This document shows positions 2,053-46,365 of a stretch of DNA of 55,502 bases, piece after piece. The stretch's first letter is position 1, and every line of letters begins with the position of its first letter. A program made the position numbers and the translations under genes. The notes under the pieces are model-generated. The model was not told the origin of the DNA and did no database searches. It saw only the letters and a program-made list of their open reading frames with translations. Source of the DNA: a virus; the IMG/VR virus record IMGVR_UViG_3300009594_000005, positions 1-55,502 of that record, one strand, 5' to 3'.

Positions 2053-2120
2053 GGTATTGGGCAGGCGTTATGCGAGGCTGCAAGCATTCTCCGTTTAATC
2101 CGCACTGTGAGTCTGACATC

Positions 2121-2205
2121 GCCAGTGTGTTACCATTACACCACCCCCTCAGTAGTAGTAGTTGGGCGAAAGTGAGGGAGATCGAAATTGAATCGACATC
2201 CCGGC
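2121..2205 (-). ncRNA. Permuted tRNA-like domain B (no anticodon loop)
   Basis: Read in transcript order: a 3' anticodon-stem strand GCCGG (2205-2201), a T arm with loop TTCAATT (2197-2181), a 3' acceptor strand CTCCCTC and discriminator A (2180-2173), a 22-base spacer, a 5' acceptor strand GAGGGGG (2150-2144), TG, a D arm GTGT/ACAC with A14 and GG in the loop (2141-2127), and a 5' anticodon-stem strand CTGGC (2125-2121). All four stems pair (one G-U in the acceptor stem, one in the anticodon stem). The break is at the anticodon loop, and the flanking bases pair instead (2227-2220 with 2106-2099). There is no encoded CCA, and the acceptor is not of alanine type. Confidence 0.7.
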
Positions 2206-2295
2206 GAGCTTTGTTTTTAAGTGCGAACCTCGATTTCGCAGCCCTGCCCTGAGTTTAACCTAGAGTGATAGCTTGACACTGCGTTTCCAGTGAGA

Positions 2296-2635
2296 TGTAA
2301 CGAGGCTTATGACGCCCCGTTGCCTTCCAATCAGCCACCCCACGATAAGGGTTGAGGGAACAATCCGTGTTCCACAGCACCGTTCAGAGTGCCAGTCTAT
2401 ATCATTAGACGCTCAACCTTTCGAGACTATCCTAGTCTCTGCGGCCTTCCGTGGTTGCCATCCGTAGACTTCACCATCCTTGGTATGAGCATCCTCGCTC
2501 ATTTGGGTTTGTGCCTGTCCTGGCCGAGCCATCCAACGCTCGCCGTTGAGCAATACCTTCCTTGGAAACGGTGGCCTTCCTAGCTCTACAAACCCTGCTC
2601 TCCAAAGCAGTCGTGGGGGCAGGAATCGAACCTGC
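2296..2635 (-). tRNA. Circularly permuted tRNA-like gene A, CAU anticodon
   Basis: The T arm GCAGG-TTCGATT-CCTGC (2635-2619) and 3' acceptor CCCCACG plus A (2618-2611) come first. After 266 bases come the 5' acceptor CGTGGGG (2344-2338), TG, a D arm (2335-2319, one C-A mismatch), and an anticodon arm GGGGC-GTCATAA-GCCTC (2317-2301) with CAT at 34-36, then GTTAC. Joined the other way round, this is a full 74-base cloverleaf with seven Watson-Crick acceptor pairs, T33, A37 and canonical T54 T55 C56 and A58. No CCA is encoded. It would be a Met or Ile (CAU) tRNA if it is circularised and processed; otherwise it is a tRNA-shaped domain of the larger RNA. Confidence 0.6.
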
Positions 2636-2706
2636 ATATTCACCACACCAAAATGAAACTAAGCCTAAGCCTGTCACTCAATACACACTTGTCAGTGTGC
2701 TTCCCT

Positions 2707-2734
2707 AAAATATCGTCCTTCGCCGAACTGTCTA
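2707..2734 (-). promoter_or_regulatory. Putative promoter for the structured RNA
   Basis: On the minus strand, TAGACA (2734-2729) and TATTTT (2712-2707) are separated by 16 bases, a fair sigma70-type match. This would start transcription near 2700, just before the first hairpin. An inverted repeat TTCGCCGA/TCGGCGAA (2758-2751 and 2726-2719) brackets the -35 element and could be an operator. Confidence 0.4.
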
Positions 2735-2871: not shown

Positions 2872-3612
2872 CTAGACGGCTGTTCTTGTGATGAAGTCCC
2901 AGATTTCACGACCGATCTTGACCGGCGTGACATTCAGTTGGTTCGCCTCCTCACGAGCGGACTTCACCGCCTCGATCAGTTGACGAACACGAGCCAACAT
3001 CAGGTTTTTCTTTTGTACGGGAATCGCCCCGCTGAACTTGATCGTGGTCCATTCGCCGATCTTCACGTCTTCCGTGAAGACCTCGACCTGGGCTGGATGC
3101 TTGTCGGTCGCCTCGGCCTTGACGTGGTTCTTCATCACCTTCTTGGTCTTGTTGGAGGTCGAAGGCTCCGACTTGAAACACGCCGCCGCTTCATCCCACT
3201 TCCAGGTCTCGGCGAGGTCCAGCGTTGGTAGATGCGAAAGGAAGGTCTGGATGTCCACCAACTGCTTCTCAAGGAACATCAAATGCGTCACCGGCACCTG
3301 TTCCTTGATGACCTTGCCATCTACCTTGATGTCCGCCTTGGCTTCGCAGTTGGCATAATCCTGCGTAGCCGTGCAGTCAAGTAGATCGGTCATCACTTCC
3401 GAGAAGGCGTCGATGGCCTCCTTGAGGCTATATTGAATGTTTTTCTTCTCTGGCGGAAACGTCTCGCCGTCCTCGTTCAAAGGACGATACGTGCGGGTCA
3501 GGCCGTCGAACAGCGAGGCCTTCTGGATTTGCTTGTAGATCAAGTCCCGCTCCTTCTTCAAGCGAGACTTCTTCCCCGTCGTCACGGCTACTATCTGGCA
3601 CAGCTTCGCCAT
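2872..3612 (-). CDS. Conserved protein of unknown function (DUF7873-like), 246 aa
   Basis: The 246 residues match, from memory, a widespread bacterial family of about 250 residues. Its hallmark segments are visible: KKSRLKKERDLIYK near the start, ATQDYANCEAKADI in the middle, VTHLMFLEKQLVDI, then NHVKAEATDKHPAQVEV and GEWTTIKFSG. The domain is complete, mostly helical at both ends, and ends in a REEAN-containing helix. No enzyme motif is evident and the role of the family is unknown. The start is supported by GGAG upstream. It is a single-gene unit facing away from the next plus-strand genes. Presence in a phage suggests acquisition from a host. Confidence 0.7.
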   Translation of the reverse strand: MAKLCQIVAVTTGKKSRLKKERDLIYKQIQKASLFDGLTRTYRPLNEDGETFPPEKKNIQYSLKEAIDAFSEVMTDLLDCTATQDYANCEAKADIKVDGKVIKEQVPVTHLMFLEKQLVDIQTFLSHLPTLDLAETWKWDEAAACFKSEPSTSNKTKKVMKNHVKAEATDKHPAQVEVFTEDVKIGEWTTIKFSGAIPVQKKNLMLARVRQLIEAVKSAREEANQLNVTPVKIGREIWDFITRTAV

Positions 3613-6664: not shown

Positions 6665-6880
6665 GACTGATAGTTCAGCCGGATCGTATCTGAGTCCGTG
6701 GGTTTTGCGGATGGTGTTTTGTCCTATTTGACCAAGTGTTACTCTGCTTCAAAAGGACTGAGTTTTTCGAGGCGATCTTTAGTCCATCGCCTTCATCCCC
6801 TCCCCTAAAGGGCTTTTGGCTCCGAAGAATGGTAAAGTTGCTCCCGTTCTTCCCAGATCGTCATCTGACCCTTCATTGGT
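6665..6880 (-). pseudogene. Decayed small genes
   Basis: The minus strand shows protein-like fragments in alternating frames: from the ATG at 6880, MTIWEEREQLYHSSEP; then TKDRLEKLSPFEAE; then VTLGQIGQNTIRKTHGLRYD ending at a TGA near 6665. Single-base changes at a CCAAAAGC run (about 6813) and near a GAGTA (about 6740) would join them into one or two small genes. As the sequence stands no frame longer than about 35 codons is open. No promoter or repeat explains this stretch. Confidence 0.35.
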
Positions 6881-7038
6881 GTTGCTAGGACAAGCACGCC
6901 GCCGTAGGCGGCGTGCTATTTCAGTGTGCGATAGCTCGTGCTATTTGATCATCATCTGACCCTTCATTGATGTTGCTAGGACAAGCACGCCGCCTACGGC
7001 GGCGTGCTATTTCAGTGTGCGATAGCTCGTGCTATTTG
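6857..7038. repeat. 91-bp tandem duplication with an inverted hairpin core
   Basis: Two copies (6857-6947 and 6948-7038) differ at two single bases and in the hairpin loop: GCACGCCGCC-GTA-GGCGGCGTGC in the first, -TAC- in the second. The hairpin has therefore been inverted in one copy. The second copy overlaps the last nine codons of the gene at 7012-7299, so the first copy is a duplicated gene end plus its downstream hairpin. Confidence 0.85.
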
Positions 7039-7299
7039 ATCGTAGCTCCAGTTCTCCATGACGGCCTGTAGAAATAGGTCAGGATGCTCCCGAATAGCGT
7101 TGACCCACGCCAAAGCGAAGAAACACTTGTGTGCTTCTACCCGTTCATGCGTAGCGAACTGAGACACAGTGCCGCCACGCTTCACGAATGTTAGCACCCT
7201 GTGACCGCCTTCTAGCAAAATGTCCGCTACAGTCGCTTCATATGCTTGTGAGCATTGAACAGGAGTTTTGTCGCCAATGGCTTTGACGTTGCCTAGCAT
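7012..7299 (-). CDS. Hypothetical protein, 95 aa
   Basis: An intact 95-residue frame following the membrane protein gene by three bases. The N-terminal half contains PVQCSQAYEATVADILLEGG, and the C-terminal half is helical (FFALAWVNAIREHPDLFLQAV). A GGAGATAAACC site precedes the start. Its last nine codons lie inside the 91-bp tandem duplication. No known domain, membrane segment or signal. It is probably co-transcribed with the membrane protein upstream. Confidence 0.55.
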   Translation of the reverse strand: MLGNVKAIGDKTPVQCSQAYEATVADILLEGGHRVLTFVKRGGTVSQFATHERVEAHKCFFALAWVNAIREHPDLFLQAVMENWSYDQIARAIAH

Positions 7300-16901: not shown

Positions 16902-17059
16902 TTCAAGGCTTTTGCTTTCAGTGCCGCCTGCTGCCTCTGTTGTAGTTGTTGCAACGTAATCAGTGGCACAAGGGCATTGGTTTTTCTAGGTGGGGCAGCG
17001 TTGTTTCTACTCCCACAGCCTCTACAGCATCCCATAGGATTTACCCCGCAACAAGTCAT
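16895..17059 (-). CDS. Cys-rich miniprotein, 54 aa
   Basis: The start (ATG at 17059) overlaps the stop of the nucleotidyltransferase-like gene (TAATG), indicating coupled translation. The first 16 residues hold five cysteines (TCCGVNPMGCCRGCG), and the rest is a Gln/Ala/Lys-rich helix (LQQLQQRQQAALKAKALKK). This could be a zinc knuckle followed by a coiled-coil or DNA-binding tail. No family recognised. It ends in the shared terminator. Confidence 0.6.
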   Translation of the reverse strand: MTCCGVNPMGCCRGCGSRNNAAPPRKTNALVPLITLQQLQQRQQAALKAKALKK

Positions 17060-18528
17060 TAGTCGTCTTTCATGAACTTTTCGACTTCCATATCGTCCAC
17101 GATCTTGTTCTTCTTGAACTCGTCCTCATCGCCCTTGGCTTTACCAGATTTTACGGCGTCATCGAACTTCGTGGTCTTTCTCCAACCGGCAAACTTCTTG
17201 ACGTGTTTAGCCCACCAAGGTCTCCGGTTTCTCTCTGTGCCTTTGATCTTGAACATATCTACCCAATCTTCGATCTGTTGTTTGGATAGACCGGTTCCTT
17301 CTCGCTGAGCCATCATCTTCGGCAGATGTTCTGGTGCGAATTCCTTAAGCTTCAACAGGAAGCAAACGGCATTCTTTTCGTCGTCGCCCCAGCCCGACTT
17401 TTTTATCTGGCCGTTGTCGTCTTCGTAATCACCAGCTAGAGCCTTCTCGACGGCTTCGACAGGATTGTGTTGGAGCAACCATGCCAAGGCAAGGGCTTTG
17501 TCCTTCTTGTCGGAAATCTCAACCGGGACGCCCGAAGGCGGATCGAACTTGAGTCCTGGGAAGACCTTTTTGAGTAGATCGGTCTTCTTGTACATGTTGA
17601 TATAGCACTTTGGATCGATATCTGGGTGTAGCAGACCCTTGAGAAACTCTTCTTTCACCTGATCCCCTGGCACGCCGTCTAGGTCACGGAATCTGCCGAT
17701 AGCTTTCTCGATCTTCTCGTCCATTGGACCCTTACCATAGCGGCAATGCAGTCTCACGGCACGCATGACACGAATCTTGTCTTCCTTGAATTTCTGCTCT
17801 GGGTCGCCGATTGTCTTGATAACACCTTGCATTGTGTCGTAGTGCCCAGTCTCGGTTGGATCGTATAACTTAGTGTTGGGGCCGTCCGATTTACTCAACT
17901 CGATGTAATTTGCGTTCATGGTCAAGTCACGGCCTTGGGCGTCATCCTTGGGGTTATCGGTGAAATCGGCGTTAGCCGAGCCAAACGAAACCTTGGGGTC
18001 ACGTCTCATGGTATTGATGTCAAACTCCTCGCCCTCGACCGTGGCCTTGATAGAGTATGCCTTCTTCTCCTTGCTATTGTCTTTGGCTCCGCAGTTCCAG
18101 ATGAGCTTGTCACCTTCCTTTGCCACTTCTGGCTTAAAGGTGAGTTTGAGGTTTTCAGTCGGACAATCCCCAGCCATCTTGAAGCCAGCGGAGTGTAAAA
18201 TCTGTGCGGTTTGTTCAGGAGTGGCGTTTGTTACCAAGCTGTATTTTCTAACAGACTTGCCACGGAGGAAGTCACGCACAGAGCCTCCGGTGAGGAAGAG
18301 ACTCTTCTTAGGCATCGTCATTTCCTTAGTGGTGTCGCCCATGATCTTTACTTCGGCACTCTTCACGAATGCATCAATAATCGGACGTAGTTTCGGGGGT
18401 GGAACGAAACCTGGATCAATCTGGGTGAACTTCTTCTTCCAGTCTTTGTCGGCTCCACTTTCGCCACTTCCAGAAGGGTTGTCGCCTTCCTTCAGCAACA
18501 CATAGTCTTTGAATGATTTGAAACTCAT
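17059..18528 (-). CDS. CCA/poly(A) polymerase-like nucleotidyltransferase, catalytic Asp pair absent, 489 aa
   Basis: After a capsid-targeting-like N-terminus (MSFKSFKDYVLLKE|G) the protein follows the class II nucleotidyltransferase family: GGSVRD (81-86), GEEFDINTMRRD, GRDLTMNANYIE, YDPTETGHYDTMQG, then GDPEQKFKEDKIRVMRAVRL. The Asp-x-Asp that should follow GGSVRD by about ten residues is replaced by K-Y-S (95-97). Two of the three metal-binding carboxylates are therefore missing and polymerisation is unlikely. It may bind tRNA 3' ends or be a structural remnant. The Lys-rich C-terminal third is unlike bacterial relatives. It is coupled to the Cys-rich miniprotein downstream. Confidence 0.75.
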   Translation of the reverse strand: MSFKSFKDYVLLKEGDNPSGSGESGADKDWKKKFTQIDPGFVPPPKLRPIIDAFVKSAEVKIMGDTTKEMTMPKKSLFLTGGSVRDFLRGKSVRKYSLVTNATPEQTAQILHSAGFKMAGDCPTENLKLTFKPEVAKEGDKLIWNCGAKDNSKEKKAYSIKATVEGEEFDINTMRRDPKVSFGSANADFTDNPKDDAQGRDLTMNANYIELSKSDGPNTKLYDPTETGHYDTMQGVIKTIGDPEQKFKEDKIRVMRAVRLHCRYGKGPMDEKIEKAIGRFRDLDGVPGDQVKEEFLKGLLHPDIDPKCYINMYKKTDLLKKVFPGLKFDPPSGVPVEISDKKDKALALAWLLQHNPVEAVEKALAGDYEDDNGQIKKSGWGDDEKNAVCFLLKLKEFAPEHLPKMMAQREGTGLSKQQIEDWVDMFKIKGTERNRRPWWAKHVKKFAGWRKTTKFDDAVKSGKAKGDEDEFKKNKIVDDMEVEKFMKDD

Positions 18529-23037: not shown

Positions 23038-26000
23038 ATGGCACAAATTGAAGACCTATTAGGAAGGGTAGTAGAGAACACGCAGCCTATTGCAGAAATG
23101 CGAGAGTTCCTGCGTTCGTTGCTCAAAGCTCCTGCCCCGAACAAGACGGTCATGCCAGAAACGAAAGGACCGGAAGAAGAGACTCCGACCGATGCGAGAC
23201 GAAATGAAATCTTGGGCGACATTCAGAAGATTCTTGAAAGGTCCGAAGAGAACTTCAAAGAGCAAATGAAAGAAGGCCAGAAGGCCGTAGATGACACTAA
23301 GGCACTTCTAGAAGAGATCGCAGCAGCCAAAGCAGCCCAGGGTGGAGATAAGCCCTCAACAACTAACGTGACGGTAGTTGTGCCCGCTGCCCAGCCAATC
23401 GAAGCAGGTGCAAGCGGTCTGACCGACAAACTCTTGGCTGGTCTTCTGGATATTCAGAAAAACATGCTCAGGTCTACATTGGACCTGAATGCTACTAGTA
23501 GATCAGTCGAGAAAACGCTGGCCTTCCTAACCAAAGAAGCAACTACACAGGGGTCAATTTGGGTCAAGGGCACAGTCACCGTCCTTTCTCCAACTATAGA
23601 AAGTGGCATAAGGAGTGTAACCGAAGCCATTAAAAGTGTCAAGACAGCAATGGCCTCTTCTCCAGTGGCTATGCCGGTGCCGCCTGTAGCTACCCCTGTG
23701 CCCACTCCACCAGCCCCAGCAGCGGCAACCAAACCAGTTACATCACTCCTTGGCAAACTCAAGGCGATGATCCCGGCAATGATCCGGCCAAAGGCACCTG
23801 CTCCACCCGCACCACCGAAGCCGCCTGCTCCACCAGGAGGAGTGGCCCCAGAAGGAGGCGGTGGTAAACCGGTGAAGGTAGGCGTAGACCTTCCGGACGA
23901 GAAGAAAGGTAAGAAAGCTGCCGATGATATCGGTGCAGGTTTTTCCAAGGGGATCGACGATTGGCGGGCTGAATGGAAGAAGATGCTCCTAGACCCCTTC
24001 AACATCATGGCTAAGTCATGGATGGAGGTTCAAAAAGCAATCTTCGGAGGCATCGAAGAGGAACTAGAGTACCAAAAGCAAATTAGAGCTATAGCTTTCC
24101 AGACCCAAGGGGTGACAAGAGCCACAGAAGACCTGCAAAGACAGTTTGTTGATCTAGGAAAAACTGTTGGTGAAACCGGCCAAAATCTGACCGCCATGCA
24201 GCAAGAATATCTAAAGAACCTCCGTAAAGGCAACATGAGTCGGAAGCAAGCTCTGACTATGACCAAAATTGGTCTTAACCTAGAAACCATGATTGGTGCG
24301 GAAGGGCAGGGCGTCTCCGAGACCCTGTACGATTGGAGTTTGCATCTTAGGCTCTCTGTGAACCAATCAGCACAAATCAGCAGAGAAGTTCAAGACGTTG
24401 CTCGGTGGACTGGAATAACCGGGGATAAACTAGCAGGTGCCGTCAAGAAGGCAACTGAACTGGCAAAGGTTCTAGACCACGCCGGTACAGCAACAGCACA
24501 GTCCGTAGCCAACCTCATTAGGTTGAATGCCATCGCCGAAAAATTCAACGTCGGTGATGCGGTGAATGACCTTAACTCTGCTCTTACTAGTAGCCACACA
24601 CTGTTCATGAAGGCAAGCCCACAGGTCCAAAACCTGCTATTCGGGGCAACAGCCGCCGTTGGCAAACTAGGGCAATTGAAGCAAGGCATCATCCTTCAAA
24701 GCCGTGAAGGTATGAGGGATATGGCCCAGGGTATGGAAATGATGCTGAGTAGGTTCGGCGTCACCTTGGAGGAAATTGAAAATCTAGACCCAGAGAGATT
24801 GATGAGACTCAACCTGCAACTAGGTGAAGCCTATGGTATGCAGGCCAATGAGATCAAGAAGGTCATCGAAACCTATCGTGAGGCCAGCAAGGGGTTCGGC
24901 GATCGAATGTGGGATATCAATAAGGAGCTTGAGAATGGCAACCTCACAGCACAAGAAAGACTGAAACTGGAAAGAGATCGTCAGCAGTTGGTGATGGGCG
25001 AGGGCTTCAGATTCCTCACCATGTTTGATGAGGCTGCCAAGAAGGGCGGTGATATGGCGTCGGTCATGGCGAACATGACCGGCAAGATGTCTACTGATAT
25101 AAGGAAAGACCTAGAACAAATGGGCGTCTCTGTGACCGGCGATGCCAAAATGATGGGTCAAATCTTCAACCTAACCACCAAAAAACTCAAGGAAGCAGGA
25201 AGTAAGGTAGATTTTACTCCTCAGATCGAGGAGGCAATGGCATCGGGCAATGTCATCAAGATGCGTGAAGTCCTCGAAAAGATGAACGAGGAACAAAGGA
25301 AGTTGGGTGTCGAGACCGCCAAGAAGCTCGACCCGATGGCCGAGATAGCACACACCCTCAATAAGATCAACGAGTACACTAGAACCCTGGGCGGCAAGAT
25401 GATAATGGGCATTGCCGCTCTCATGGGGCCTTTGGGCATCATTGCCTTCCACACAGGCGTAATGGCTGCCGCTATGATGCCAAGTGGTTTGTTTACTAGC
25501 TTGTTTGGAAAACTAGGAGGAATGTTCAAGGGTGGGGCAGGAGCCGCCGCCACTGGAGCAGGTAAGGCCGCTGCAAATGTCGGTGATGGTGCCATCGCAC
25601 TGGCACCCGCTGCCGCTCAACAGGCCATCAAAAGCACCGCCCCGACGATAGCAAAAACCATCACTCCAGCGGTCACAAATGCCGCCACTCAAAATGCATC
25701 TGCCGCCATCACACAATCTACAATTGCTGCTTCTAGTACCGTTGCCGCCAAAGCCGCTCCTGCTGCTGCCGAACAAATGAGCCAAGCACTCGGCAAGGCT
25801 CCTAAAGGCTTTAAGTTCCCAGCAATGAACATCAAGGGCATGGGCAGTTTCGCTGCACAACTAGCTCTTGGTGCGTTGGCACTAACCGCAGTAGCCGTGG
25901 GCTTGGTTGCTATGGCTTTGGTCATCATCAAAGTCACCGACGCAATACTAGGCATCGGTGGAATGGATGCCGAGAAGGCTGCGAAGGCCGCACTAAACAT

Positions 26001-29000
26001 CGCAGCCCTCATGGGTGCAATGGCTGTGTTGATGGGTGCCGTCACGGTCAACGCCGCACTCATGACCGGCGTTGGGTATGCTTTGACACAAGTAGAGTTC
26101 ATTGCACCGGCCTTGATAGCTGGTGCCCTGGCTCTAGCCGTTCTAACCCCTGCAATGATTTTGATGGCTGTCGCCATCATCAAAATAGCTGACGCCTGTG
26201 CCGGTCTCGGCGTAGACTTCAAGACCGGCCTAGAAGTGGCACGTAAAGTCGGCGAATTGATCGGTGTTGCAGCACTTATCTCCGGTGCTGTTGTGGCAGC
26301 CGCCGCTGGTCTAACCGGCGTTGGTATGCTGTACCCGTATGTTGGCTATATGCTTCTGGGTGCCGCTACCCTTCTATTGTTGACACCTGCCATCATCAAA
26401 CTAGCTCTTGCCATCATAAATTTAGCAAATGGTCTGAGCAAAGGATTTGATCCTAAATACGGAGCAGTGGTTGGAAAACAAGTTGCCGACATTCTCATAG
26501 CTGCTGGGAAGATAACAGGAGCTATTTTGCTTGCCGGTGGTGCTTTGGTCGGTATTAGCCTGTTGTCCATACTAACGCCATTCATGTATATCGGTGCCGT
26601 GGTTCTATATGGCATGACAGATGGCATCATTAGATTAGCCCAAGCCATCATAAATCTGTCCGACAAGCTCATCAAAAAACTCAAGATGGACCCGGCTGCC
26701 GTCGCAAAGACGGCAAAACAGGTAGCGGTCATATTTGAAGCAGTTGGGCAAATTACCAGTGCTGTAACCTCTTATGCGGGCAAACTGATTGGCCTTGGCT
26801 CTATGGGTCTACTTGGCCAGATCATGAGCCTGGGGGCAAGTCAACTGGAAAGTATCATCCCGAAGATGAAAAAGTTGGCTATTGCTGTAGCCACAATGGG
26901 AGCGGAGCTTCGTGAAGCGACTGGAGAGATGAGCGGCGAGGATATAGTCAAGAGCGTGCAACAGATGCAGAAGGTCTTAATGGCCGTAACAGCGGTCATG
27001 AGCGACTTGATCGATAATGTTGCACCTATGGCCCAGAGTTTCCTCTGGTGGGATTCGCCACTAGAAGACCTAGAAGAATCTATCGATCCATTCGTTGCCA
27101 GCTTTAAGAACGTCGGCAAGATGTTCAGAAAGTTGATCGAAGTAATACAGAGCGACTTTGGAACGATCAGGGACATGGCAGACCTTGTGCCGCAAATTCA
27201 GGGTGCGGGCAAAGTGCTTATGACTGTTACTGCCGTCATGCAAGATATGATCGATAAAGTAACTCCTATGGCAGATAGTTTCTTGTGGTTTGATTCGCCG
27301 CTAGAAGACTTGGACGAGGCCATGCCTTCATTCTTGTCGAGCTTCAAGAAGGTCGGCACCCTATTCAAAGAATTGCTCAAGGTAGTGCAGTCGAGCTTCG
27401 GACCAATTGAATCGGTGAAAGAGATAGTGCCTGTAATTGAGGGTGCAGGCAAAATTCTTATGACTATAACTGCGGTCATGACCGACATGATCGAGAAAGT
27501 AGCCCATCTTGCAGACAGTTACCTCTGGTTTGATTCGCCACTAGAAGACCTAGATAAAGCCGTGGGTCCATTTCTTGCGAGCTTTGAGAAGGTCGGCGGT
27601 CTTTTCAAAGACATCATGATGGTTGTCAGGGAAAACTTCGCCGCCGCCGAGAATGCCAAGGAGATAGTTCCTATTGTACAAGGGGCCGCTCAGATTCTAT
27701 CTGCAACCGCAGCTATGGTTACAGAGTTGGCCGATGTCATTCCTGCGTTGACTGATGGTTTCTTGTGGTTCTATTCTCCAGTAGAAGACCTTGTAGAAGG
27801 TATGCCTGCTTTCCTCGACGCCTTCGAGCAAGTAGGTACATTCTTCAGCGGCATCATCGAAGTGGTACAACAGAACTTTACCGCTGGTGAGGCAGTCAAA
27901 GAAATTCTCCCCATCATACAAGGGGCCGCACAAATCATCGCCGCCACTACCTCAATGGTCACTACGCTGGCGGATGTGATCCCCGGCTTGACCAATGGCT
28001 TCTTGTGGTTCGGCTCACCGGTAAAAGACTTGAAAGAAGGTATGCCCATCTTCCTAGCAGCCTTCAGGGAAGTGGGTACGTTCTTCACCAACTTAGTTGC
28101 AGTAGTGCAAGAGAACTTTGGTGCTGGCGAGGCTGCTAAAGAAATCTTGCCGGTCATCCAGGGAGCAGCTTCAATCATTGCTGCTACGACCAACATCATC
28201 ACCCAGCTAACTCAAACTATACCTCCTCTCACCAAGAGCTTCTTGTGGTCTGACTCGCCAATAGAAGACATGAAAGAAGGTATGCCGGTATTCCTCGATG
28301 CCTTCGAGGAGGTCGGTACATTCTTTACCAATCTCGTAGACGTGGTACAACAGAGTTTCGGTGCGGGCGAAGCCGTTAAAGAGATCGTACCCATGATTCA
28401 GGGTGTGTCTCAAATTCTAACCGCTGTCACCGATGTCATGAATGTAATGACGAGTGCCATCGTGCCGCTCACCCAGGGCAGTTGGTTTACTGACTCGCCA
28501 GTAGAAAATATCCGTGAGGCCATTAACGAGTTTGGCAACTTCTTCTGGGCTGTGGGCAATTTTATCAGCACTGGCATCGTGAAACCTATTGCTTCTACAT
28601 TCGGCGATGCCGCAGGCTTGAAGCAAGTGGCCGAGAGTGCAAAAGCAATGTCTGTTGTGTTGACCAGCATTAGCGATGTTATGGACACAATGCTATACGC
28701 CATCGTGCCACTAACCGAGGGAAGTTGGTTCAGCGACTCGCCAGCAGAAAGAATACTGGAGGCAAAAGATGAGTTCGGTGATTTCTTCTGGTCGGTGTCT
28801 TCGTTCATTGCCTCTGGCATCATAGAACCAATTGCACATAGCTTTGGAGAGGCCAAAGACCTAGCTCCTGTAGCTGAAACTGCAAAGGCTATGGGTGTAG
28901 TTCTACAATCCGTAGCCGCCATGATGGATGTGTTGACCTACTCGATCATCCCGTTGGTAAGCGGTGGTTGGTGGTTCAGTGCAGCACCAGCAGACAAGAT

Positions 29001-32000
29001 CAAAGAATACCTGCCGAAATTCGCCGCATTCTTCTGGGCTACTTCAGGCTTACTGAGAGATGGTATTGTACTGCCGATCATGATGAATTTCGGTGAGGCT
29101 AAGAATCTAGAGCCTGCTGCGGCGACGGCAAACGCAATGGCAACGGTCCTGACTTCGGTAGCAACCGTAATGGATACGCTAACCAAGTCCATTATCCCAT
29201 TGACGAGAGAAGGTTGGTGGTTCAAGAAGTCGCCGGTCGAGAAAATATACGAAGGCGTCATCAAGTTCAGTAGTTTCTTCCAGGCCATCGCTTGGTTCTT
29301 GAGAATGGGTATCGTAAACCCGATCCAGGCATATTTCGGTGATGCCAAGGAACTTGAGTCGGCTGCCGCATCCGCACAGGCTATGGCTAAGGTTATCCAG
29401 GCCATTCCGCCAATGATGGATGCTATGACCCCAACACTATCGGTTATGACTAACAAAAGTTGGTGGAGCAAGAAGACACCGGCTGATAAGATTCGAGAAG
29501 CCATCCCATTGTTTGAACCGTTCTTCCTAGAACTGTCTAGGTTCCTGCGTGATGGTATCATTACCCCAATTCGTGCCTACCTGCCTAACGATCAAGAGGT
29601 CACGAGCGTTGCACAGTCCGTAGTAGCGATGGCTACTATATTGACCGAGATTCCAAAGATGTTCGCAGCTTTGGACCCGGTGCTAAGGACGGTAACACAC
29701 AGAGACTTCTGGAGCCGAATGACGCCTGCTGAAAGAATGCAGAAGGCTATGCCGCCGTTCAAAGATTTCTTCTTCGGTCTAGCTCAGTTTTTGCGTGACG
29801 GAGTTATCACACCGATCCGTGCCTACCTGCCTAACGATCAGGAGGTCACAAATGTTGCACAGTCCGTAGTCGCCATGTCTACCATTTTGACTGAAATCCC
29901 AAAGATGATGGCGGCGTTGGACCCTGTTCTATCAGACATCTCCGATAGAGGCTCGTGGTGGTTCCCGCAAAGAAAGAAGTCCGAACGTATTCTAAAAGCT
30001 GCCAAGGAATATCAACCATTCTTCCTAAGCCTCTCACAGTTCATGCGTGATGGCATCGTTACTCCGATCCGTGCCTACCTGCCAAATGATCAAGAAGTCA
30101 CCAGCGTAGCCGCCTCTGTAGTGGCTATGGCGAAGATTCTACAAGAAATCCCGAAGATGATGACAGCCTTGGAGGGCACCTTGTCTGTTGTCAGCGACAG
30201 AGGAACTCGTTGGTTCCCGAAGCCAGCCAAGTCCAAAAGACTGTTAGCCGCTGCCGATGAGTTTCAACCATTCTTCTTCAACCTAGCTCAGTTCTTGAGA
30301 GACGGGGTGATAACTCCGATCCGTGCTTACCTGCCCAACGACCAGGAAGTAACGAGCGTTGCTGAATCCGTAGTGGCAATGGCGAAGATTCTAGAAGCTC
30401 TACCAAAAGTCTTTGATAGTATCATGACCGGCCTCATCCCACTTATGCAGGCCGATAGATGGACTGGTCAGGTTCCGGCTCACAGAATCAGTGCGATGAT
30501 GCCTGTGTTCAACAAGTGGTTCATGAACATCTCAATGTTGTTGAGAGACGGCGTTATCACTCCGATTAGGGCCTTCTTCCCGAACCCGCAGGAAATACAG
30601 ACGGTTGCCCAGCAAATTGCTGAAATGGCTACGATCATTGAGAACCTCAGCAAGTTCCTCAACTACGTCAGCACTAAGTTGATGATTATGTTAACCGGTT
30701 GGTGGTGGGGCGAGTCCTCCATTGTCCAAACGGCAAGCAGAGTATCTGAGTTCTCCGCATACTTCACTGGTATAGCGAAAGGTCTGGGCGAGGGTATTAT
30801 TATCCCGATTCGCACAACCTTCCCGCAACCAGGCGAGTTAATGACCATCATCCAGCAGCTTGATGGTATGCTGCAAGTTCTAGACATTCTACCAGTCTTC
30901 CTAAATCTGCTGTCTGAAAGAATGAAACAGATCAACGAAGGTTGGTGGTGGGGCCTACAGTTCCAGGTTGGCTCGTTCTCAACTTTCTTCTCCGACATAG
31001 CAACTGCTCTTGGAATGGGCATCATAGAGCCGATCAGACAATTCCCACCGGCTGAGGAGATCAACACCATTGTTGAGACGTTAGACGCCGTAAGCAATGT
31101 GTTGATGGCTTTGCCGGGGTTCCTTGCTAATTTGGCAACCACCATGCAACAAATCAACCAGGGTTGGTGGTGGGGTATGAGATGGGACACGGCGGTTGTA
31201 ACTTATTGGTTCGGTGGTCTAGTCACCACGATCAATACCGGCATCATCCAGCCGATTATACCGCTACCATCCGCAGAAGACATTACGGCTCAGGTAAGCA
31301 AGCTAGAAGCCCTACAGAATGTACTGACACTTCTGCCAACTGTTTTGGACACACTCGCCAAGGCAATGGAGAGAATGAATCGTGGCTGGTGGTGGGATCA
31401 GCGTTGGGAAGTCCGTCGGTTCGGTTATTGGTTTAGAGGAATGGCAGAAGCCATTGGTGGTGGAATTCTAACACCGATCAGAGATGGTCTGCCTAAGACC
31501 GAGGAAGTACAAGCCGCAGCCGACAAGATGCAAGTCCTTGCCGATGTCATGGATAACTTGGTCCATGTCTTCGAGACACTCGCCGAGGTAATGGAGAGAT
31601 TCAAGAGTGGCGAGTTTGAAGGTATCAAGGGCATGGCAGACGCCATCAATCCAATGCTCGAAGAGGTTAAGGCTCTTAACCTTGGTGCATTCGATTTGAA
31701 CCTGCCAAAAGAGGCTATGGCTATTGGCACGGAACTAAAGGTTGCCAAGACTGCCTTTGATGCATCCCTCGAAGAAGGCGATCAAGTAACAGCGGCAGCC
31801 GCAGAGGGTCTCAAGAAGATCGGAGTAACTGCATCTGGTGTAGGCGGTGAAACCGCCATCAAGGAGGCCACGGTAGCGGGTGCAGCGGAAGCAGCAGACA
31901 TGAGTGCTGTTGAGGAGGCCGAGAAAATGGCCCTCGAACTCATGGAAGTTGAAAAGCTCAAGGTCGAAGAAATCGTAGCCGAAAAGCTTAAGATTGAGAA

Positions 32001-35000
32001 TGTAGAAGCAACTGCACCTGCTACTGCGGCGGTTCAAACTATACCGGTTGCTGGATCGGGCGTAGTTCCTGGCAGCGTCTATATGCAAACGCCTAGTATT
32101 CAGGGTGTAATCCCTCCAGGCCCAATGGCGGCACAACGAGCGGTCCAGACTGCCCCGGCACCAACCGGTCCACTTTCTCAAGCTCTACAACAGAGGGACA
32201 TGATACCGCAGGCTGTTACACCTGCCCCGCAGCAGGCGGTTCAGGCTCCACAGCAAGTAGTTCAGACCCCGGCTGGACCGATGACACAGGCTCTACAACA
32301 ACGAGGCATGATGCCTACGGCTGTAGCAGCCCCGGCACAGGTTCAACAGAATGTTGTTGTGCCTGCCCCGGCACCCGCTGCCCAGGCCGCAACTGCTCCG
32401 ACCGTTCCTGGTGTGTATGGTGCTACTACGTCCGCCGTAGAGTTTGCTCCAGCGACTTCGGTTAGACTGCCAGTTTTGGCCGCTCCGACAGCAGTTTCGA
32501 GGGCAGCAGCTAGCACTCAGACCAATCAGTACGAACAACTGATTGCCGGGCAACACGCTAGAAACGATCAGGCTGTAGTCAATCTACAAGCCGGGACTGT
32601 TCAGAGAACAGCGGCCATGTTGGGACAGCCAGTTCCACCAGCACAACAAATGGCGGGTACTACACCGGCACCTGCCCCGGTGAGAACTTGGAATGATGTA
32701 GCTGCAATGCAGGCCACTCAGGATCAGGGAATCCTATTGAGTCAAATTTCGGCCAACATGGTTCCATCAACCGCCACTCGTGGTTTCGCTCCGCAACAGG
32801 GCCAGCCTGTAAGCACCCAGACGAGTGCTTATGAACAGATGATCGCCAACCACAGGGCGGCTAAAAATCAAGCTGTAGCCAATCTACAAGCTGGAACCGC
32901 ACAGAGAACGGCTGCTATGTTAGGCCAACCGCTTCCAGCGGCTACACCTGCCGCAGCAACTACTCCAGCGGTGCCAACGCCTCCAGCTATGCCAATGGCT
33001 TCTGCTGCTACTTTGGCTAACCTCCAATTCCAGAGACCGGGCACGGTCAACCCAGGTACCCAGCTTTACAACGCTGGCACACCAACGGCAGTACCGACGT
33101 CAACTGGAGGACAGCCGCCGCTATCTAACATGTTGAACCCTCTGGCACAAGCACAGAGAAACATGCAAGTTCAGCAGGATGTAAACAACAGGGCACGGTT
33201 CGATGCGGCCATGACATCTGCACGGCAACAAGCGGCTCTTGCGGCCAGCACTCAGACAAATGCATATGAGCAGATGATTGCTAACCAGCACACGGCTAAC
33301 AATCAGGCTGTGACTAACCTACAAAATGCTACAGCACAAAAGACTGCTGGCATCTTGAATCAGCCTCTACCTGTGACTGCGGCTCAGGCTGTGCCTCCTG
33401 CCGCTGTTCAGCAGGCCGGAAACGTCACCGGCCAGTTGACGGCTTCTCTGCAAGGCCCGAATTCACCTACCCGGCAAATAGTTTCTCAAGCTGCCAGTAC
33501 CGTTGCAACCTCGTTGGTCAATCAGGCCAGCAACATGCAAAGTATGGATAGTGTTGTTACAGCCCAGAGAGAAGTTGAGAGAACTGCCAGAGAAACCGAA
33601 CAGCTAGGTGCCAAGGCTAATAGCAAGTTGGCCCAGACTGTTACCAACATCAGTAAGAATGCCAGGACTGGAGCATTCGACTCCAATCATGTTGTCACTG
33701 ACAACATGAAAATCACGAAAACTAGGTCCGAGAGCTTTATTACCAGACTATGGGATACGCTGACTGGTATTTCTACACAAAGTAACCAGTTGGCAGAGCA
33801 GGCAAACCAGACAGGTCAAGCCGTACAACAAGCTCAGCAGGCCCAGCAGAACCTACAGCAACAGGTCCAGCAGGCCACGCAGCAACAGCAGGTTTTACAG
33901 CAACAGCAACAGCAACAGGCGTTGAATCAAACGCTACAACAGACCATTCAGCAGGGTGGGGATGCACAGTATGCACAATTGGCACAGCAAGGCGGTCAGG
34001 CCAACCAAACCCCAATGTCGGCTGGCGAGGAAGCGATCAGGCAGGCAGGTGCGAGTTATAACTATCGTCCGCAGGCAAATGTAGATGAAGCTACCAGACA
34101 AGCCCTGCTACAGAAGGGTTATACCGAAGATGGCATTCTAGCTCAATTAGGTCATGCTCAAGGTCCGCAGGCGACCGCTCCGTTGGCAAGTCAACTAAAT
34201 CCTTTGGCTCAAGCTCAAAGGGACATACAAGTTCAGACCGATGTGAATAACAGGGCTGCCTTTGACACTGCTATAGCACAAGCACAAGCACAAGCTAACA
34301 TGGCACGTCCTGCTGGGCCTGTCGCACCTACTGCTTATGAACAGATAATCGCCAACCACAGGGCGGCTAAAAATCAAGCTGTAGCCAACCAGAGGGCGGC
34401 TAACGATCAAGCTGTAGCCAATCTACAAGCTAGAACGGCTCAAAAAACAGCGGCCATGCTTGGACAGGCTCCGACTACCACCTTTCCAATTCCTGCTCAT
34501 GCTGAAGGTGGTGAATTCCTAGTCAACAACCCAAGACTAATCATGGTCGGCGAGAAGGGTCCAGAGCGTGTAAATATAGTTCCGCAACAGATGGCGGCTG
34601 CCGCTACCGGTCAGCCTCTATCGTCTGGTGCGGCTGTAGCCAAGGAGAAGAGCGAGCGTGCTGCTCTAACTGCTCAAACTACATCCGCCATAGCTGATGC
34701 TACTAACATGACTGCCGACGTACAAGGCAGTGTGTGTGCTATACCCCCTGCAATCACCCAGGTAAGTCAATCGGTTTCGGCTATTCCGGCTATCATCCAA
34801 GACATAGCTACTCAGATCACCGAACAGATCGCCGCTATCCCTGTTCAGGCAGAAGCTCCTGAAGCCCAAGTACAGAATCAAGCCGGACAAGCTGCTGCGG
34901 CTGAAACGGCCCAGACAATGGGTGCCGAGCAACAAGCGGCAAATGCAGCTATGGCCGATCAGAGGGCAACACAACAAGCAACTGGCAGGACGAGAGTAAA

Positions 35001-35466
35001 TATACCTCTCGCTCCAGTAGAGGTTACCCCAGAGGAACCGGCACTGTTCGGACCACGCAACGTGCCAGCAGCAGGTGCGGTTGTGACTGGTCAACCAGTC
35101 AACCCGCAACTTTCAGAGCCGGTACAGGCAAGGGCAACCTCGCTTGTAGATGAACATGAAAGGATGCAGGAACAGTATGCAAGCGAACAGGCTGGTGCCG
35201 ATGTTAGCGGTGGTAACAAAGATTTGGCGGTCATAGCTAATCTAAATGAGCGACAACTTGAGATGTTGTCCACCATCCACGACGATCTGCAAGAGCTTGT
35301 TGCTCTATTCCAGCCAAGCGAGGCATCCGGCGATACTGGCAATATGATGGCTGGTTCTACTAGAACACAAACCCTATCGCCAAAGAACCCATCTGATTAC
35401 GGCAATTGGCAGTTCGGTAGATACAACGGTAACGCCAACAAGAACGTATTGAACCCAGGCACATAA
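23038..35466 (+). CDS. Giant tail tape measure protein, 4142 aa
   Basis: Residues 1-210 are charged and coiled-coil-like, 215-290 Pro/Ala-rich. A helical region follows (about 330-790), then a strongly hydrophobic region (about 795-1200) with several possible membrane helices (ALGALALTAVAVGLVAMALV). From about 1270 to 2850 come roughly 19 tandem units of 75-85 residues with Trp-rich cores (FLWFDSPLEDLDE type). Gln/Ala/Pro linkers with repeated AYEQMIANHRAAKNQAVANL units fill about 2960-3800. Near the C-terminus GGEFLVNNPRLIMVGEKGPE (about 3823) is the usual tape measure signature. At about 0.15 nm per residue it would template a tail of several hundred nanometres. No frameshifts in 12.4 kb. 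Confidence 0.92.
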   Translation: MAQIEDLLGRVVENTQPIAEMREFLRSLLKAPAPNKTVMPETKGPEEETPTDARRNEILGDIQKILERSEENFKEQMKEGQKAVDDTKALLEEIAAAKAAQGGDKPSTTNVTVVVPAAQPIEAGASGLTDKLLAGLLDIQKNMLRSTLDLNATSRSVEKTLAFLTKEATTQGSIWVKGTVTVLSPTIESGIRSVTEAIKSVKTAMASSPVAMPVPPVATPVPTPPAPAAATKPVTSLLGKLKAMIPAMIRPKAPAPPAPPKPPAPPGGVAPEGGGGKPVKVGVDLPDEKKGKKAADDIGAGFSKGIDDWRAEWKKMLLDPFNIMAKSWMEVQKAIFGGIEEELEYQKQIRAIAFQTQGVTRATEDLQRQFVDLGKTVGETGQNLTAMQQEYLKNLRKGNMSRKQALTMTKIGLNLETMIGAEGQGVSETLYDWSLHLRLSVNQSAQISREVQDVARWTGITGDKLAGAVKKATELAKVLDHAGTATAQSVANLIRLNAIAEKFNVGDAVNDLNSALTSSHTLFMKASPQVQNLLFGATAAVGKLGQLKQGIILQSREGMRDMAQGMEMMLSRFGVTLEEIENLDPERLMRLNLQLGEAYGMQANEIKKVIETYREASKGFGDRMWDINKELENGNLTAQERLKLERDRQQLVMGEGFRFLTMFDEAAKKGGDMASVMANMTGKMSTDIRKDLEQMGVSVTGDAKMMGQIFNLTTKKLKEAGSKVDFTPQIEEAMASGNVIKMREVLEKMNEEQRKLGVETAKKLDPMAEIAHTLNKINEYTRTLGGKMIMGIAALMGPLGIIAFHTGVMAAAMMPSGLFTSLFGKLGGMFKGGAGAAATGAGKAAANVGDGAIALAPAAAQQAIKSTAPTIAKTITPAVTNAATQNASAAITQSTIAASSTVAAKAAPAAAEQMSQALGKAPKGFKFPAMNIKGMGSFAAQLALGALALTAVAVGLVAMALVIIKVTDAILGIGGMDAEKAAKAALNIAALMGAMAVLMGAVTVNAALMTGVGYALTQVEFIAPALIAGALALAVLTPAMILMAVAIIKIADACAGLGVDFKTGLEVARKVGELIGVAALISGAVVAAAAGLTGVGMLYPYVGYMLLGAATLLLLTPAIIKLALAIINLANGLSKGFDPKYGAVVGKQVADILIAAGKITGAILLAGGALVGISLLSILTPFMYIGAVVLYGMTDGIIRLAQAIINLSDKLIKKLKMDPAAVAKTAKQVAVIFEAVGQITSAVTSYAGKLIGLGSMGLLGQIMSLGASQLESIIPKMKKLAIAVATMGAELREATGEMSGEDIVKSVQQMQKVLMAVTAVMSDLIDNVAPMAQSFLWWDSPLEDLEESIDPFVASFKNVGKMFRKLIEVIQSDFGTIRDMADLVPQIQGAGKVLMTVTAVMQDMIDKVTPMADSFLWFDSPLEDLDEAMPSFLSSFKKVGTLFKELLKVVQSSFGPIESVKEIVPVIEGAGKILMTITAVMTDMIEKVAHLADSYLWFDSPLEDLDKAVGPFLASFEKVGGLFKDIMMVVRENFAAAENAKEIVPIVQGAAQILSATAAMVTELADVIPALTDGFLWFYSPVEDLVEGMPAFLDAFEQVGTFFSGIIEVVQQNFTAGEAVKEILPIIQGAAQIIAATTSMVTTLADVIPGLTNGFLWFGSPVKDLKEGMPIFLAAFREVGTFFTNLVAVVQENFGAGEAAKEILPVIQGAASIIAATTNIITQLTQTIPPLTKSFLWSDSPIEDMKEGMPVFLDAFEEVGTFFTNLVDVVQQSFGAGEAVKEIVPMIQGVSQILTAVTDVMNVMTSAIVPLTQGSWFTDSPVENIREAINEFGNFFWAVGNFISTGIVKPIASTFGDAAGLKQVAESAKAMSVVLTSISDVMDTMLYAIVPLTEGSWFSDSPAERILEAKDEFGDFFWSVSSFIASGIIEPIAHSFGEAKDLAPVAETAKAMGVVLQSVAAMMDVLTYSIIPLVSGGWWFSAAPADKIKEYLPKFAAFFWATSGLLRDGIVLPIMMNFGEAKNLEPAAATANAMATVLTSVATVMDTLTKSIIPLTREGWWFKKSPVEKIYEGVIKFSSFFQAIAWFLRMGIVNPIQAYFGDAKELESAAASAQAMAKVIQAIPPMMDAMTPTLSVMTNKSWWSKKTPADKIREAIPLFEPFFLELSRFLRDGIITPIRAYLPNDQEVTSVAQSVVAMATILTEIPKMFAALDPVLRTVTHRDFWSRMTPAERMQKAMPPFKDFFFGLAQFLRDGVITPIRAYLPNDQEVTNVAQSVVAMSTILTEIPKMMAALDPVLSDISDRGSWWFPQRKKSERILKAAKEYQPFFLSLSQFMRDGIVTPIRAYLPNDQEVTSVAASVVAMAKILQEIPKMMTALEGTLSVVSDRGTRWFPKPAKSKRLLAAADEFQPFFFNLAQFLRDGVITPIRAYLPNDQEVTSVAESVVAMAKILEALPKVFDSIMTGLIPLMQADRWTGQVPAHRISAMMPVFNKWFMNISMLLRDGVITPIRAFFPNPQEIQTVAQQIAEMATIIENLSKFLNYVSTKLMIMLTGWWWGESSIVQTASRVSEFSAYFTGIAKGLGEGIIIPIRTTFPQPGELMTIIQQLDGMLQVLDILPVFLNLLSERMKQINEGWWWGLQFQVGSFSTFFSDIATALGMGIIEPIRQFPPAEEINTIVETLDAVSNVLMALPGFLANLATTMQQINQGWWWGMRWDTAVVTYWFGGLVTTINTGIIQPIIPLPSAEDITAQVSKLEALQNVLTLLPTVLDTLAKAMERMNRGWWWDQRWEVRRFGYWFRGMAEAIGGGILTPIRDGLPKTEEVQAAADKMQVLADVMDNLVHVFETLAEVMERFKSGEFEGIKGMADAINPMLEEVKALNLGAFDLNLPKEAMAIGTELKVAKTAFDASLEEGDQVTAAAAEGLKKIGVTASGVGGETAIKEATVAGAAEAADMSAVEEAEKMALELMEVEKLKVEEIVAEKLKIENVEATAPATAAVQTIPVAGSGVVPGSVYMQTPSIQGVIPPGPMAAQRAVQTAPAPTGPLSQALQQRDMIPQAVTPAPQQAVQAPQQVVQTPAGPMTQALQQRGMMPTAVAAPAQVQQNVVVPAPAPAAQAATAPTVPGVYGATTSAVEFAPATSVRLPVLAAPTAVSRAAASTQTNQYEQLIAGQHARNDQAVVNLQAGTVQRTAAMLGQPVPPAQQMAGTTPAPAPVRTWNDVAAMQATQDQGILLSQISANMVPSTATRGFAPQQGQPVSTQTSAYEQMIANHRAAKNQAVANLQAGTAQRTAAMLGQPLPAATPAAATTPAVPTPPAMPMASAATLANLQFQRPGTVNPGTQLYNAGTPTAVPTSTGGQPPLSNMLNPLAQAQRNMQVQQDVNNRARFDAAMTSARQQAALAASTQTNAYEQMIANQHTANNQAVTNLQNATAQKTAGILNQPLPVTAAQAVPPAAVQQAGNVTGQLTASLQGPNSPTRQIVSQAASTVATSLVNQASNMQSMDSVVTAQREVERTARETEQLGAKANSKLAQTVTNISKNARTGAFDSNHVVTDNMKITKTRSESFITRLWDTLTGISTQSNQLAEQANQTGQAVQQAQQAQQNLQQQVQQATQQQQVLQQQQQQQALNQTLQQTIQQGGDAQYAQLAQQGGQANQTPMSAGEEAIRQAGASYNYRPQANVDEATRQALLQKGYTEDGILAQLGHAQGPQATAPLASQLNPLAQAQRDIQVQTDVNNRAAFDTAIAQAQAQANMARPAGPVAPTAYEQIIANHRAAKNQAVANQRAANDQAVANLQARTAQKTAAMLGQAPTTTFPIPAHAEGGEFLVNNPRLIMVGEKGPERVNIVPQQMAAAATGQPLSSGAAVAKEKSERAALTAQTTSAIADATNMTADVQGSVCAIPPAITQVSQSVSAIPAIIQDIATQITEQIAAIPVQAEAPEAQVQNQAGQAAAAETAQTMGAEQQAANAAMADQRATQQATGRTRVNIPLAPVEVTPEEPALFGPRNVPAAGAVVTGQPVNPQLSEPVQARATSLVDEHERMQEQYASEQAGADVSGGNKDLAVIANLNERQLEMLSTIHDDLQELVALFQPSEASGDTGNMMAGSTRTQTLSPKNPSDYGNWQFGRYNGNANKNVLNPGT
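27061..31500 (+). repeat. Tandem 240-nt units inside the tape measure gene
   Basis: The codons after the Trp-rich core recur at exact 240-base steps from 27061 through 28501 (27061, 27301, 27541, 27781, 28021, 28261, 28501), then at 243 and more variable steps to about 31500. DNA identity between units is modest, so the period is preserved by selection on the protein. Confidence 0.8.
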
Positions 35467-45968: not shown

Positions 45969-46365
45969 AAAGAGACAACATCAACTGGATGAGAAGTAGG
46001 CTACTCCATGTAGCTAACCGAGCCAAGGAGCGGCTGAATATAAAGCTCGATGTACATAGTTACTTCAGGCTTTGCGACATGATTAAGAATAGCAGGAGGA
46101 AATCCAAGCACGCTAAGCTGGTGAGAGAAGAGTCCTCGTGCAGACAAATATGGAAGGTTTACTTTAATAGTCTGTGGTTTTTGTCGTCTATGACAGAGAC
46201 AACAACCTTCTGATAACCTACAAGTGCGGCTGCGGTCTTGAGATGGATCGGGACTTGAATGCTGCGTGTAATTTGAGAAATACCGTCAGTTCGACGGCAG
46301 GTGGTCGTCGTAGAAATGAGAATCAAACGCAAAATCTATCACTGTTAGATTTTGGTAGGTTTTGA
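45965..46365 (+). pseudogene. Frameshifted phage gene fused to a TnpB C-terminal remnant
   Basis: The first frame (45965-46213) starts in an ATGA overlap and encodes a basic helical protein (NINWMRSRLLHVANRAKERL). Near 46170 it slips; adding one G restores …FNSLVVFVVYDRDNNLLITYK. After that point the sequence becomes KCGCGLEMDRDLNAACNLRN and a TVSST…GGRRR tail, the zinc-finger and catalytic C-terminus of IS200/IS605 TnpB. No transposase upstream part or TnpA is present. I read it as a transposon relic captured by, and damaging, a phage gene. Confidence 0.65.

What the first reader, a model, noticed from the sequence alone, without database searches (positions are those of the whole stretch)
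2296..2635. A circularly permuted tRNA-like gene with a complete CAU cloverleaf in a phage
T arm and 3' acceptor strand (2635-2611) precede the 5' acceptor, D arm and anticodon arm (2344-2301) on the transcribed strand. Rejoined, all seven acceptor pairs are Watson-Crick and the conserved bases T8, A14, G18-G19, T33, A37, T54-T55-C56 and A58 are in place. To my knowledge permuted tRNA genes are known from some algae and one archaeon, not from phages. The chance of this pattern arising in random sequence is very small.
Basis: partly seen in the sequence, partly recalled or inferred. Interest (0 to 1): 0.92.

Follow-up and report, generated by a model that had tools for sequence, protein, structure and literature searches.

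The report
Phage Y-RNA-like tRNA mimics, permuted order
A stretch of a giant phage's DNA does encode the pieces of a tRNA in swapped order, twice in a row, and the best reading is not a scrambled tRNA gene but a Y-RNA-type tRNA look-alike (the phage also carries the gene for Ro60, the protein that binds Y RNAs), with one unit built in a way not described before.

Summary
On the minus strand a T arm plus 3' acceptor strand (2635-2611) precedes the 5' acceptor strand, D arm and CAU hairpin (2344-2299). The rejoined halves are called tRNA-Met(CAU) by ARAGORN, and no such pattern arose in 245 simulated genomes. Both units lie in one noncoding stretch ending in a strong terminator, each closed by a long outer helix. 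The window is part of a 436-kb huge phage with 62 ordinary tRNAs. The order 'outer stem, T arm, capped acceptor hairpin, D arm, outer stem' is that of the bacterial Y RNA YrlA, a known tRNA mimic. This phage encodes Ro60 (TROVE), and B is its only such module outside ordinary tRNAs. The same permuted units turned up in Ro-encoding phages of Microbacterium (where Rfam YrlA matches), Gordonia, Vibrio, and Bacillus phage G. A matured permuted tRNA is therefore less likely than a Ro/Y-RNA-type mimic. A is a new variant: it keeps an anticodon-like hairpin, and its acceptor stem carries a 266-nt domain. Weak points: A and B have no homologues, Rfam's YrlA model misses both, and the Ro gene lies about 227 kb away.

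The parts
2641..2679 (-). Unit A, 5' strand of the long outer helix (pairs with 2263-2297; about 29 bp in six blocks)
   Evidence: RNA fold of 2016-2870, pair probabilities 0.67-0.95
2619..2635 (-). Unit A, T arm GCAGG-TTCGATT-CCTGC
   Evidence: sequence; same T-arm form as the phage's own tRNAs
2611..2618 (-). Unit A, 3' acceptor strand CCCCACG plus A73
   Evidence: 7/7 Watson-Crick with 2344-2338; helix probability 0.97
2345..2610 (-). 266-nt domain that caps the acceptor stem of unit A (several predicted hairpins; noncoding)
   Evidence: z = -2.0 alone, -3.1 for 2296-2640; no coding signal
2338..2344 (-). Unit A, 5' acceptor strand CGTGGGG
   Evidence: sequence; identical to the 5' acceptor strand of the phage's tRNA-Met(CAU) at 165134 of the 436-kb contig
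2322..2335 (-). Unit A, D arm (3 bp GCT/GGC, loop GATTGGAA with G18-G19)
   Evidence: sequence; helix probability 0.68
2299..2321 (-). Unit A, anticodon-like hairpin AACGGGGC-GTCATAA-GCCTCGTT (CAU in the loop, 8-bp stem)
   Evidence: helix probability 0.95
2263..2297 (-). Unit A, 3' strand of the outer helix
2220..2249 (-). Unit B, 5' strand of the outer helix (GGGCAG, GGCTGCGA, TCG, GGTTCGCACT)
   Evidence: pairs with 2064-2059, 2083-2076, 2093-2091 and 2106-2097; probabilities 0.52-0.96
2201..2207 (-). Unit B, TCGCCGG, pairs with CTGGCGA 2125-2119 in the position of the anticodon stem
   Evidence: constrained fold -63.0 against -65.2 kcal/mol for the free minimum
2181..2197 (-). Unit B, T arm GTCGA-TTCAATT-TCGAT
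   Evidence: CM R1 match
2174..2180 (-). Unit B, 3' acceptor strand CTCCCTC
   Evidence: 7 pairs (one G-U) with 2150-2144
2151..2173 (-). Unit B, 23-nt loop capping the acceptor stem
   Evidence: sequence; phage G has a 25-nt cap in the same place
2144..2150 (-). Unit B, 5' acceptor strand GAGGGGG
2127..2141 (-). Unit B, D arm GTGT-AATGGTA-ACAC
2119..2125 (-). Unit B, CTGGCGA, 3' partner of 2207-2201
2059..2106 (-). Unit B, 3' strand of the outer helix
2022..2052 (-). intrinsic terminator after unit B (12-bp stem, then CTTTTTC)
2707..2734 (-). promoter-like site upstream of unit A (weak; 9 of 12 consensus positions)

Best explanation
The locus makes one noncoding RNA (about 700 nt if it starts near the weak promoter at 2734-2707; terminator at 2052-2022) with two tRNA-mimic modules of the Y RNA (YrlA) type. 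In each, the RNA enters through a long outer helix, folds a T arm, then an acceptor stem that is a closed hairpin (capped by 23 nt in B, by a 266-nt structured domain in A), then a D arm, and leaves through the outer helix. Inferred mechanism: the outer helix is held by the phage's own Ro60/TROVE protein, and the mimic module engages a tRNA-recognising or RNA-decay partner. In bacterial YrlA that partner is PNPase, with tRNA-modifying enzymes acting on the mimic. This would steer RNA decay or repair, or shield tRNAs from host anticodon nucleases, during infection. Shown: architecture of A and B, Ro gene in the same genome, co-occurrence with Ro in other phages. Inferred: transcription, Ro binding, partner and effect.
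For: Permuted architecture of A and B with outer helices. B is the only capped permuted module outside ordinary tRNAs in the whole 436-kb genome. That genome encodes a 641-aa TROVE protein, Pfam E 9e-19, with solved TROVE proteins as best PDB matches. Permuted modules in other phages with a TROVE match: Microbacterium FuzzBuster and SM23 beside the Ro gene, Gordonia Sixama, Vibrio TDDLMA, Bacillus phage G 2.8 kb from its weakly matching TROVE gene. Phage G's module was found by going to its TROVE gene first; the same prediction failed for Atu_ph07. Rfam RF02553 (YrlA) has the same order T arm, acceptor hairpin, D arm and matches FuzzBuster and SM23 at E 2e-4 and 1e-5, where model R1 gives 38-41 bits against 35.6 for B. 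FuzzBuster and SM23 differ by compensatory changes in the acceptor and outer stems. Literature: YrlA is a basal stem plus a D/T/acceptor-like domain (PMC8394870); YrlA reported in phages (PMC7765460); TROVE in some jumbo phages (PMC7824862).
Against: Rfam's YrlA model does not match A or B even at E 10. The Ro gene is about 227 kb from A and B. No homologues, so no covariation for A or B. Atu_ph07 has TROVE but no module was found within about 9 kb of it. Two huge phages with good permuted candidates, LR756511 and LR756501, show no TROVE, so permuted units are not always Y RNAs. A keeps an anticodon-like hairpin and a 266-nt acceptor insert unlike any YrlA known to me.
Confidence: 0.56

Rival explanations
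1. Relics: two tandem tRNA duplications decayed, leaving the 3' half of one copy and the 5' half of the next, so the acceptor strands still match by descent.
For: A's 5' half aligns with the phage's own tRNA-Met(CAU) well above shuffled halves. Huge phages carry many odd tRNA-like genes. Adjacent tRNAs of one isotype can have compatible acceptors.
Against: A and B lie far from the tRNA arrays, side by side, both with intact acceptor, T and D arms and long outer helices. Acceptors of different tRNAs of this phage are compatible in only 0.7% of ordered pairs. Relative to tRNA-Met, A has gained pairing (C1-G72, T3-A70) and an extra anticodon-stem pair.
Confidence: 0.2
2. A (and perhaps B) is a genuine circularly permuted tRNA gene: RNase P and 3' processing cut at the acceptor end, a ligase joins the ends at the variable region, and the phage CCA enzyme adds CCA.
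For: Complete rejoined cloverleaf. The phage encodes a CCA-adding enzyme (window 17059-18528) and a PF09414 RNA ligase. LR756511 has a permuted tRNA-Lys(UUU) with a canonical anticodon arm and LR756501 one joined in the anticodon loop.
Against: Anticodon stem of 7-8 bp in A, no anticodon hairpin in B. No RtcB and no tRNA-splicing endonuclease found. The phage already has CAU tRNAs. No bulge-helix-bulge motif seen at the junction. The Y-RNA reading explains the layout without joining.
Confidence: 0.12
3. The tRNA-like folds are parts of a large structured phage RNA of another, unknown class, without Ro.
For: 855-nt region folds better than all 20 shuffles, z -5; a 266-nt structured domain sits on A's acceptor stem.
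Against: The terminator and two strong hairpins contribute much of that stability; no other copy and no Rfam match; the Ro gene and the YrlA layout fit better.
Confidence: 0.09
4. Chance pairing.
For: Short motifs; a single genome.
Against: 0 of 245 simulated genomes for either A-like or B-like units; two units side by side.
Confidence: 0.03

Closest known systems
YrlA bacterial Y RNA (Rfam RF02553), partner of Rsr/Ro60
   Same: Outer stem from the RNA ends, then T arm, acceptor-like hairpin, D arm, outer stem; Ro/TROVE protein in the same genome; found in other phages
   Different: A and B fall below detection by the Rfam model; two modules in one transcript; A has an extra anticodon-like hairpin and a 266-nt acceptor cap; Ro gene not adjacent
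Circularly permuted tRNA genes (Cyanidioschyzon, green algae, nucleomorph, Thermofilum; PMC3978253, PMC3218864)
   Same: 3' half precedes 5' half; acceptor strands pair
   Different: Published intervening sequences are 1-74 bp against 266 here; those use bulge-helix-bulge motifs and splicing endonuclease, absent here; anticodon stem not canonical
tRNA-like domain of two-piece (permuted) tmRNA
   Same: 3' acceptor before 5' acceptor; the best Rfam match of B is the tRNA-like part of cyano_tmRNA, though only 8.9 bits, E 1.6
   Different: No tag frame recognised; the phage has an ordinary one-piece tmRNA elsewhere
Lak megaphage tRNAs with introns (PMC6784885)
   Same: Odd tRNA-like genes in huge phages
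   Different: Normal order with inserts, not permuted

Membership tests
YrlA Y RNA | Order T arm, acceptor hairpin, D arm inside one outer stem | tested here: met
   A and B; A has an additional anticodon-like hairpin
YrlA Y RNA | Match to Rfam RF02553 | tested here: not met
   No YrlA hit for A or B up to E 10, whereas FuzzBuster and SM23 hit at E 2e-4 and 1e-5
YrlA Y RNA | Ro60/TROVE protein encoded by the same genome | tested here: met
   641-aa TROVE protein, contig 153053-154978
YrlA Y RNA | Ro gene adjacent (usual, not obligatory) | tested here: not met
   Ro gene about 227 kb away
YrlA Y RNA | Binds Ro through the outer stem | not testable with these tools
   needs pull-down or gel shift
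Permuted tRNA gene | 3' half before 5' half, complete cloverleaf when rejoined | tested here: met
   A: ARAGORN tRNA-Met(CAU); B weaker
Permuted tRNA gene | Canonical 5-bp anticodon stem and 7-nt loop | tested here: inconclusive
   A: 7-nt loop with T33 and A37 but 7-8 bp stem; B: no anticodon hairpin
Permuted tRNA gene | Junction motif and splicing machinery (bulge-helix-bulge, endonuclease, RtcB) | tested here: not met
   No PF01974, no RtcB in the phage; host not known
Permuted tRNA gene | Mature, charged tRNA product | not testable with these tools
   needs RNA from infected cells
Two-piece tmRNA | Match to a permuted tmRNA model | tested here: not met
   cyano_tmRNA 8.9 bits against gathering score 70

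The most novel reading that the evidence does not exclude
A is a true circularly permuted CAU tRNA gene of a phage: an initiator-type tRNA whose halves are encoded in reverse order around a 266-nt domain and are joined at the variable region by phage or host enzymes. It would be the first such gene known outside algae and archaea.
Probability: 0.12. Interest if true: 0.9.

Novelty: new variant of a known kind. Interest (0 to 1): 0.52.

Why it matters
It suggests that huge phages carry their own Ro60 together with tRNA-mimicking Y-RNA-like RNAs, and that such modules sit largely unannotated in cultured phages (Bacillus phage G; Vibrio, Gordonia and Microbacterium phages) where they can be tested. 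Host defences attack tRNAs, and YrlA's tRNA-like domain has been suggested as a competitive inhibitor of an anticodon nuclease (PMC7790460), so a phage version is a concrete candidate for counter-defence or for redirecting PNPase. It also warns that 'permuted tRNA' patterns in phages should be checked against Y RNAs first.

Tried and rejected
Ordinary tRNA, or tRNA with intron in normal order: ARAGORN without introns finds none; with introns allowed it offers a weak tRNA-Val(aac) with a 101-nt insert that I judged spurious. Group I or II intron, GOLLD, ROOL or another Rfam RNA: no hits. Homologues of the region by blastn in phages, of DUF7873 and the next ORF in viral contigs, and by exact patterns: only the phage itself, an unrelated tRNA-Ser and chance matches. 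DNA search in 37 related contigs: only short matches, some to tRNA arms, and strays. The tRNA nucleotidyltransferase gave no further relatives. LR756508 +437322 and G024 +81403 looked permuted but remain ambiguous. A degenerate pattern for the LR756511 unit found nothing. BHB splicing as maturation: no endonuclease found. R1 cannot score A as a whole because of the 266-nt cap; only its 3' part matches (16.3 bits).

Full report
WHERE IT IS. The window is identical to positions 379234-434735 of the 435,946-bp huge-phage contig IMGVR_UViG_3300017388_000001. That genome has about 62 ordinary tRNA genes and a one-piece tmRNA. The closest GenBank relative by one baseplate protein is LR756511.1, a 595-kb uncultured phage (45% identity); IMG/VR holds hundreds of contigs with related proteins. 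The finding lies on the minus strand in a noncoding gap between a DUF7873 gene (2872-3612) and ORF 1420-1974. The small ORFs inside have no coding signal (0.01 bits per codon or less, against 0.34-0.37 for two clear genes; some neighbouring ORFs score little better). The gap ends in a strong terminator (2052-2022), and a promoter-like site lies at 2734-2707.

The acceptor pairs are 7/7 Watson-Crick. ARAGORN calls the rejoined halves tRNA-Met(CAU). The 5' half is clearly related to the phage's initiator-like tRNA-Met (local score 45, against a maximum of 35 for 200 shuffled halves). In the fold of the region the acceptor stem (probability 0.97) closes a structured 266-nt domain, and an imperfect outer helix of about 29 pairs closes the unit at the variable-arm position. 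Non-canonical points: D stem of 3 bp and anticodon stem of 7-8 bp.

2197-2181 T arm, 2180-2174/2150-2144 acceptor (23-nt cap), 2141-2127 D arm. A covariance model made from in-silico permuted phage tRNAs gives 35.6 bits, E 1.3e-11. Instead of an anticodon hairpin, CTGGCGA (2125-2119) can pair with TCGCCGG (2207-2201) across the junction and an outer helix of about 27 bp follows. That fold lies 2.2 kcal/mol above the unconstrained minimum.

CHANCE AND RELICS. 245 Markov genomes gave no A-like unit with anticodon arm and no unit with a gap up to 25 nt. Acceptor strands of different tRNAs of the phage are compatible in 0.7% of ordered pairs, so two decayed pairs that both fit are unlikely unless each pair was a duplicate of one tRNA. 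I keep 20% for relics.

WHAT IT IS. Scanning tRNA-rich phages for such units outside ordinary tRNAs gave more: LR756511 (tRNA-Lys-like, GCAA cap, 10-bp outer helix), LR756501 (junction in the anticodon loop; rejoined it is called tRNA-Tyr), and cultured phages: Vibrio TDDLMA, Gordonia Sixama (5-bp acceptor capped by UUCG), Microbacterium FuzzBuster and SM23. In FuzzBuster the unit lies just upstream of the annotated 'Ro-like RNA binding protein' gene, in SM23 just upstream of an 'RNA-binding protein' gene that matches TROVE. Rfam's YrlA model matches both at E 2e-4 and 1e-5 and has the same order (T arm, acceptor hairpin, D arm inside an outer stem). The two differ by compensatory changes in the acceptor cap pair (A-T to C-G) and the outer stem. 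YrlA is a tRNA-mimicking Y RNA bound by Rsr/Ro60, with PNPase as effector (PMC8394870). The window's phage encodes a 641-aa TROVE protein (E 9e-19), and B is its only short-capped permuted module outside ordinary tRNAs. Going first to the TROVE gene of Bacillus phage G (a match below the Pfam cut-off) led to a permuted module 2.8 kb away (7/7 acceptor pairs, 25-nt cap, 42 bits). The same prediction failed within about 9 kb of the Ro gene of Atu_ph07.

MECHANISM. Most likely a Ro-bound Y-RNA-like RNA with two tRNA-mimic modules; the outer helices bind Ro and the mimics engage tRNA-reading partners or an RNA-decay machine. Shown: layout, Ro gene, co-occurrence. Inferred: transcription, binding, function. 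Membership in YrlA proper is not claimed: the Rfam model misses A and B and the Ro gene is about 227 kb away.

PERMUTED tRNA READING. Not excluded for A (complete cloverleaf; CCA enzyme in the window; RNA ligase in the genome), and more attractive for LR756511 and LR756501, which show no TROVE. Against it for A: long anticodon stem, no RtcB or splicing endonuclease, a 266-nt intervening sequence against 1-74 bp in published cases (PMC3978253). The open-access papers I searched report no permuted tRNA gene in phages; most subscription papers, including the main YrlA papers, could not be read, so statements about them rest on the reviews cited and on my own knowledge.

Noticed in passing
LR756511.1 287950-291410, minus strand (L236 and neighbours): A short RNA motif (ACTTGGA..hairpin..TCCCC(A/T/G)A(C/T)..(C/A)(T/A)TACAAAC) occurs about 14 times in and around tRNAs, both in direct order (inside tRNA D loops) and split in reverse order around whole tRNA units, like a permuted intron-exon arrangement. 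No Rfam match.
   Followed up: partly
LR756511.1 290804-290734, minus strand: Permuted tRNA-Lys(UUU) unit with a canonical anticodon arm, acceptor capped by GCAA, flanked by the two halves of that motif and a perfect 10-bp outer helix; no TROVE gene found in this phage.
   Followed up: partly
LR756501.1 364460-364387, minus strand: Permuted unit whose junction lies in the anticodon loop, directly between two tRNA-like genes; joining AAA and CTAT gives a 7-nt loop and ARAGORN calls tRNA-Tyr(ata).
   Followed up: partly
IMGVR_UViG_3300017388_000001 about 166625-166815, plus strand: Interleaved tRNA-like halves in the order X5', Y3', Y5', X3'; Y scores 37.6 bits as a permuted unit.
   Followed up: partly
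Bacillus phage G NC_023719.1 405242-405330; Vibrio phage PP083315.1 65393-65369; Gordonia phage MN484601.1 88145-88206; Microbacterium phages MN062720.1 and PQ655446.1: Y-RNA-like permuted units in cultured phages; no annotation under the Vibrio, Gordonia and FuzzBuster units, SM23's is partly labelled tRNA-Asn, phage G's annotation was not read.
   Followed up: partly
436-kb contig 170815, 206777, 95839; IMGVR_UViG_3300020172_001601 101019, 70804, 106134: Normal-order tRNA-like genes with large anticodon-loop or other inserts; two in different phages share the motif TTATAGTTGCC.
   Followed up: no
window 46174-46365, plus strand: Short ORF ending in a DRDLNAACN motif, looks like the C-terminal remnant of a TnpB-type protein (by eye).
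   Followed up: no
window 6856-7041: Two adjacent copies of a 95-bp repeat, 95% identical.
   Followed up: no
window 23038-35466, plus strand: A 4142-aa ORF between tail genes, probably a giant tape-measure protein (by eye).
   Followed up: no
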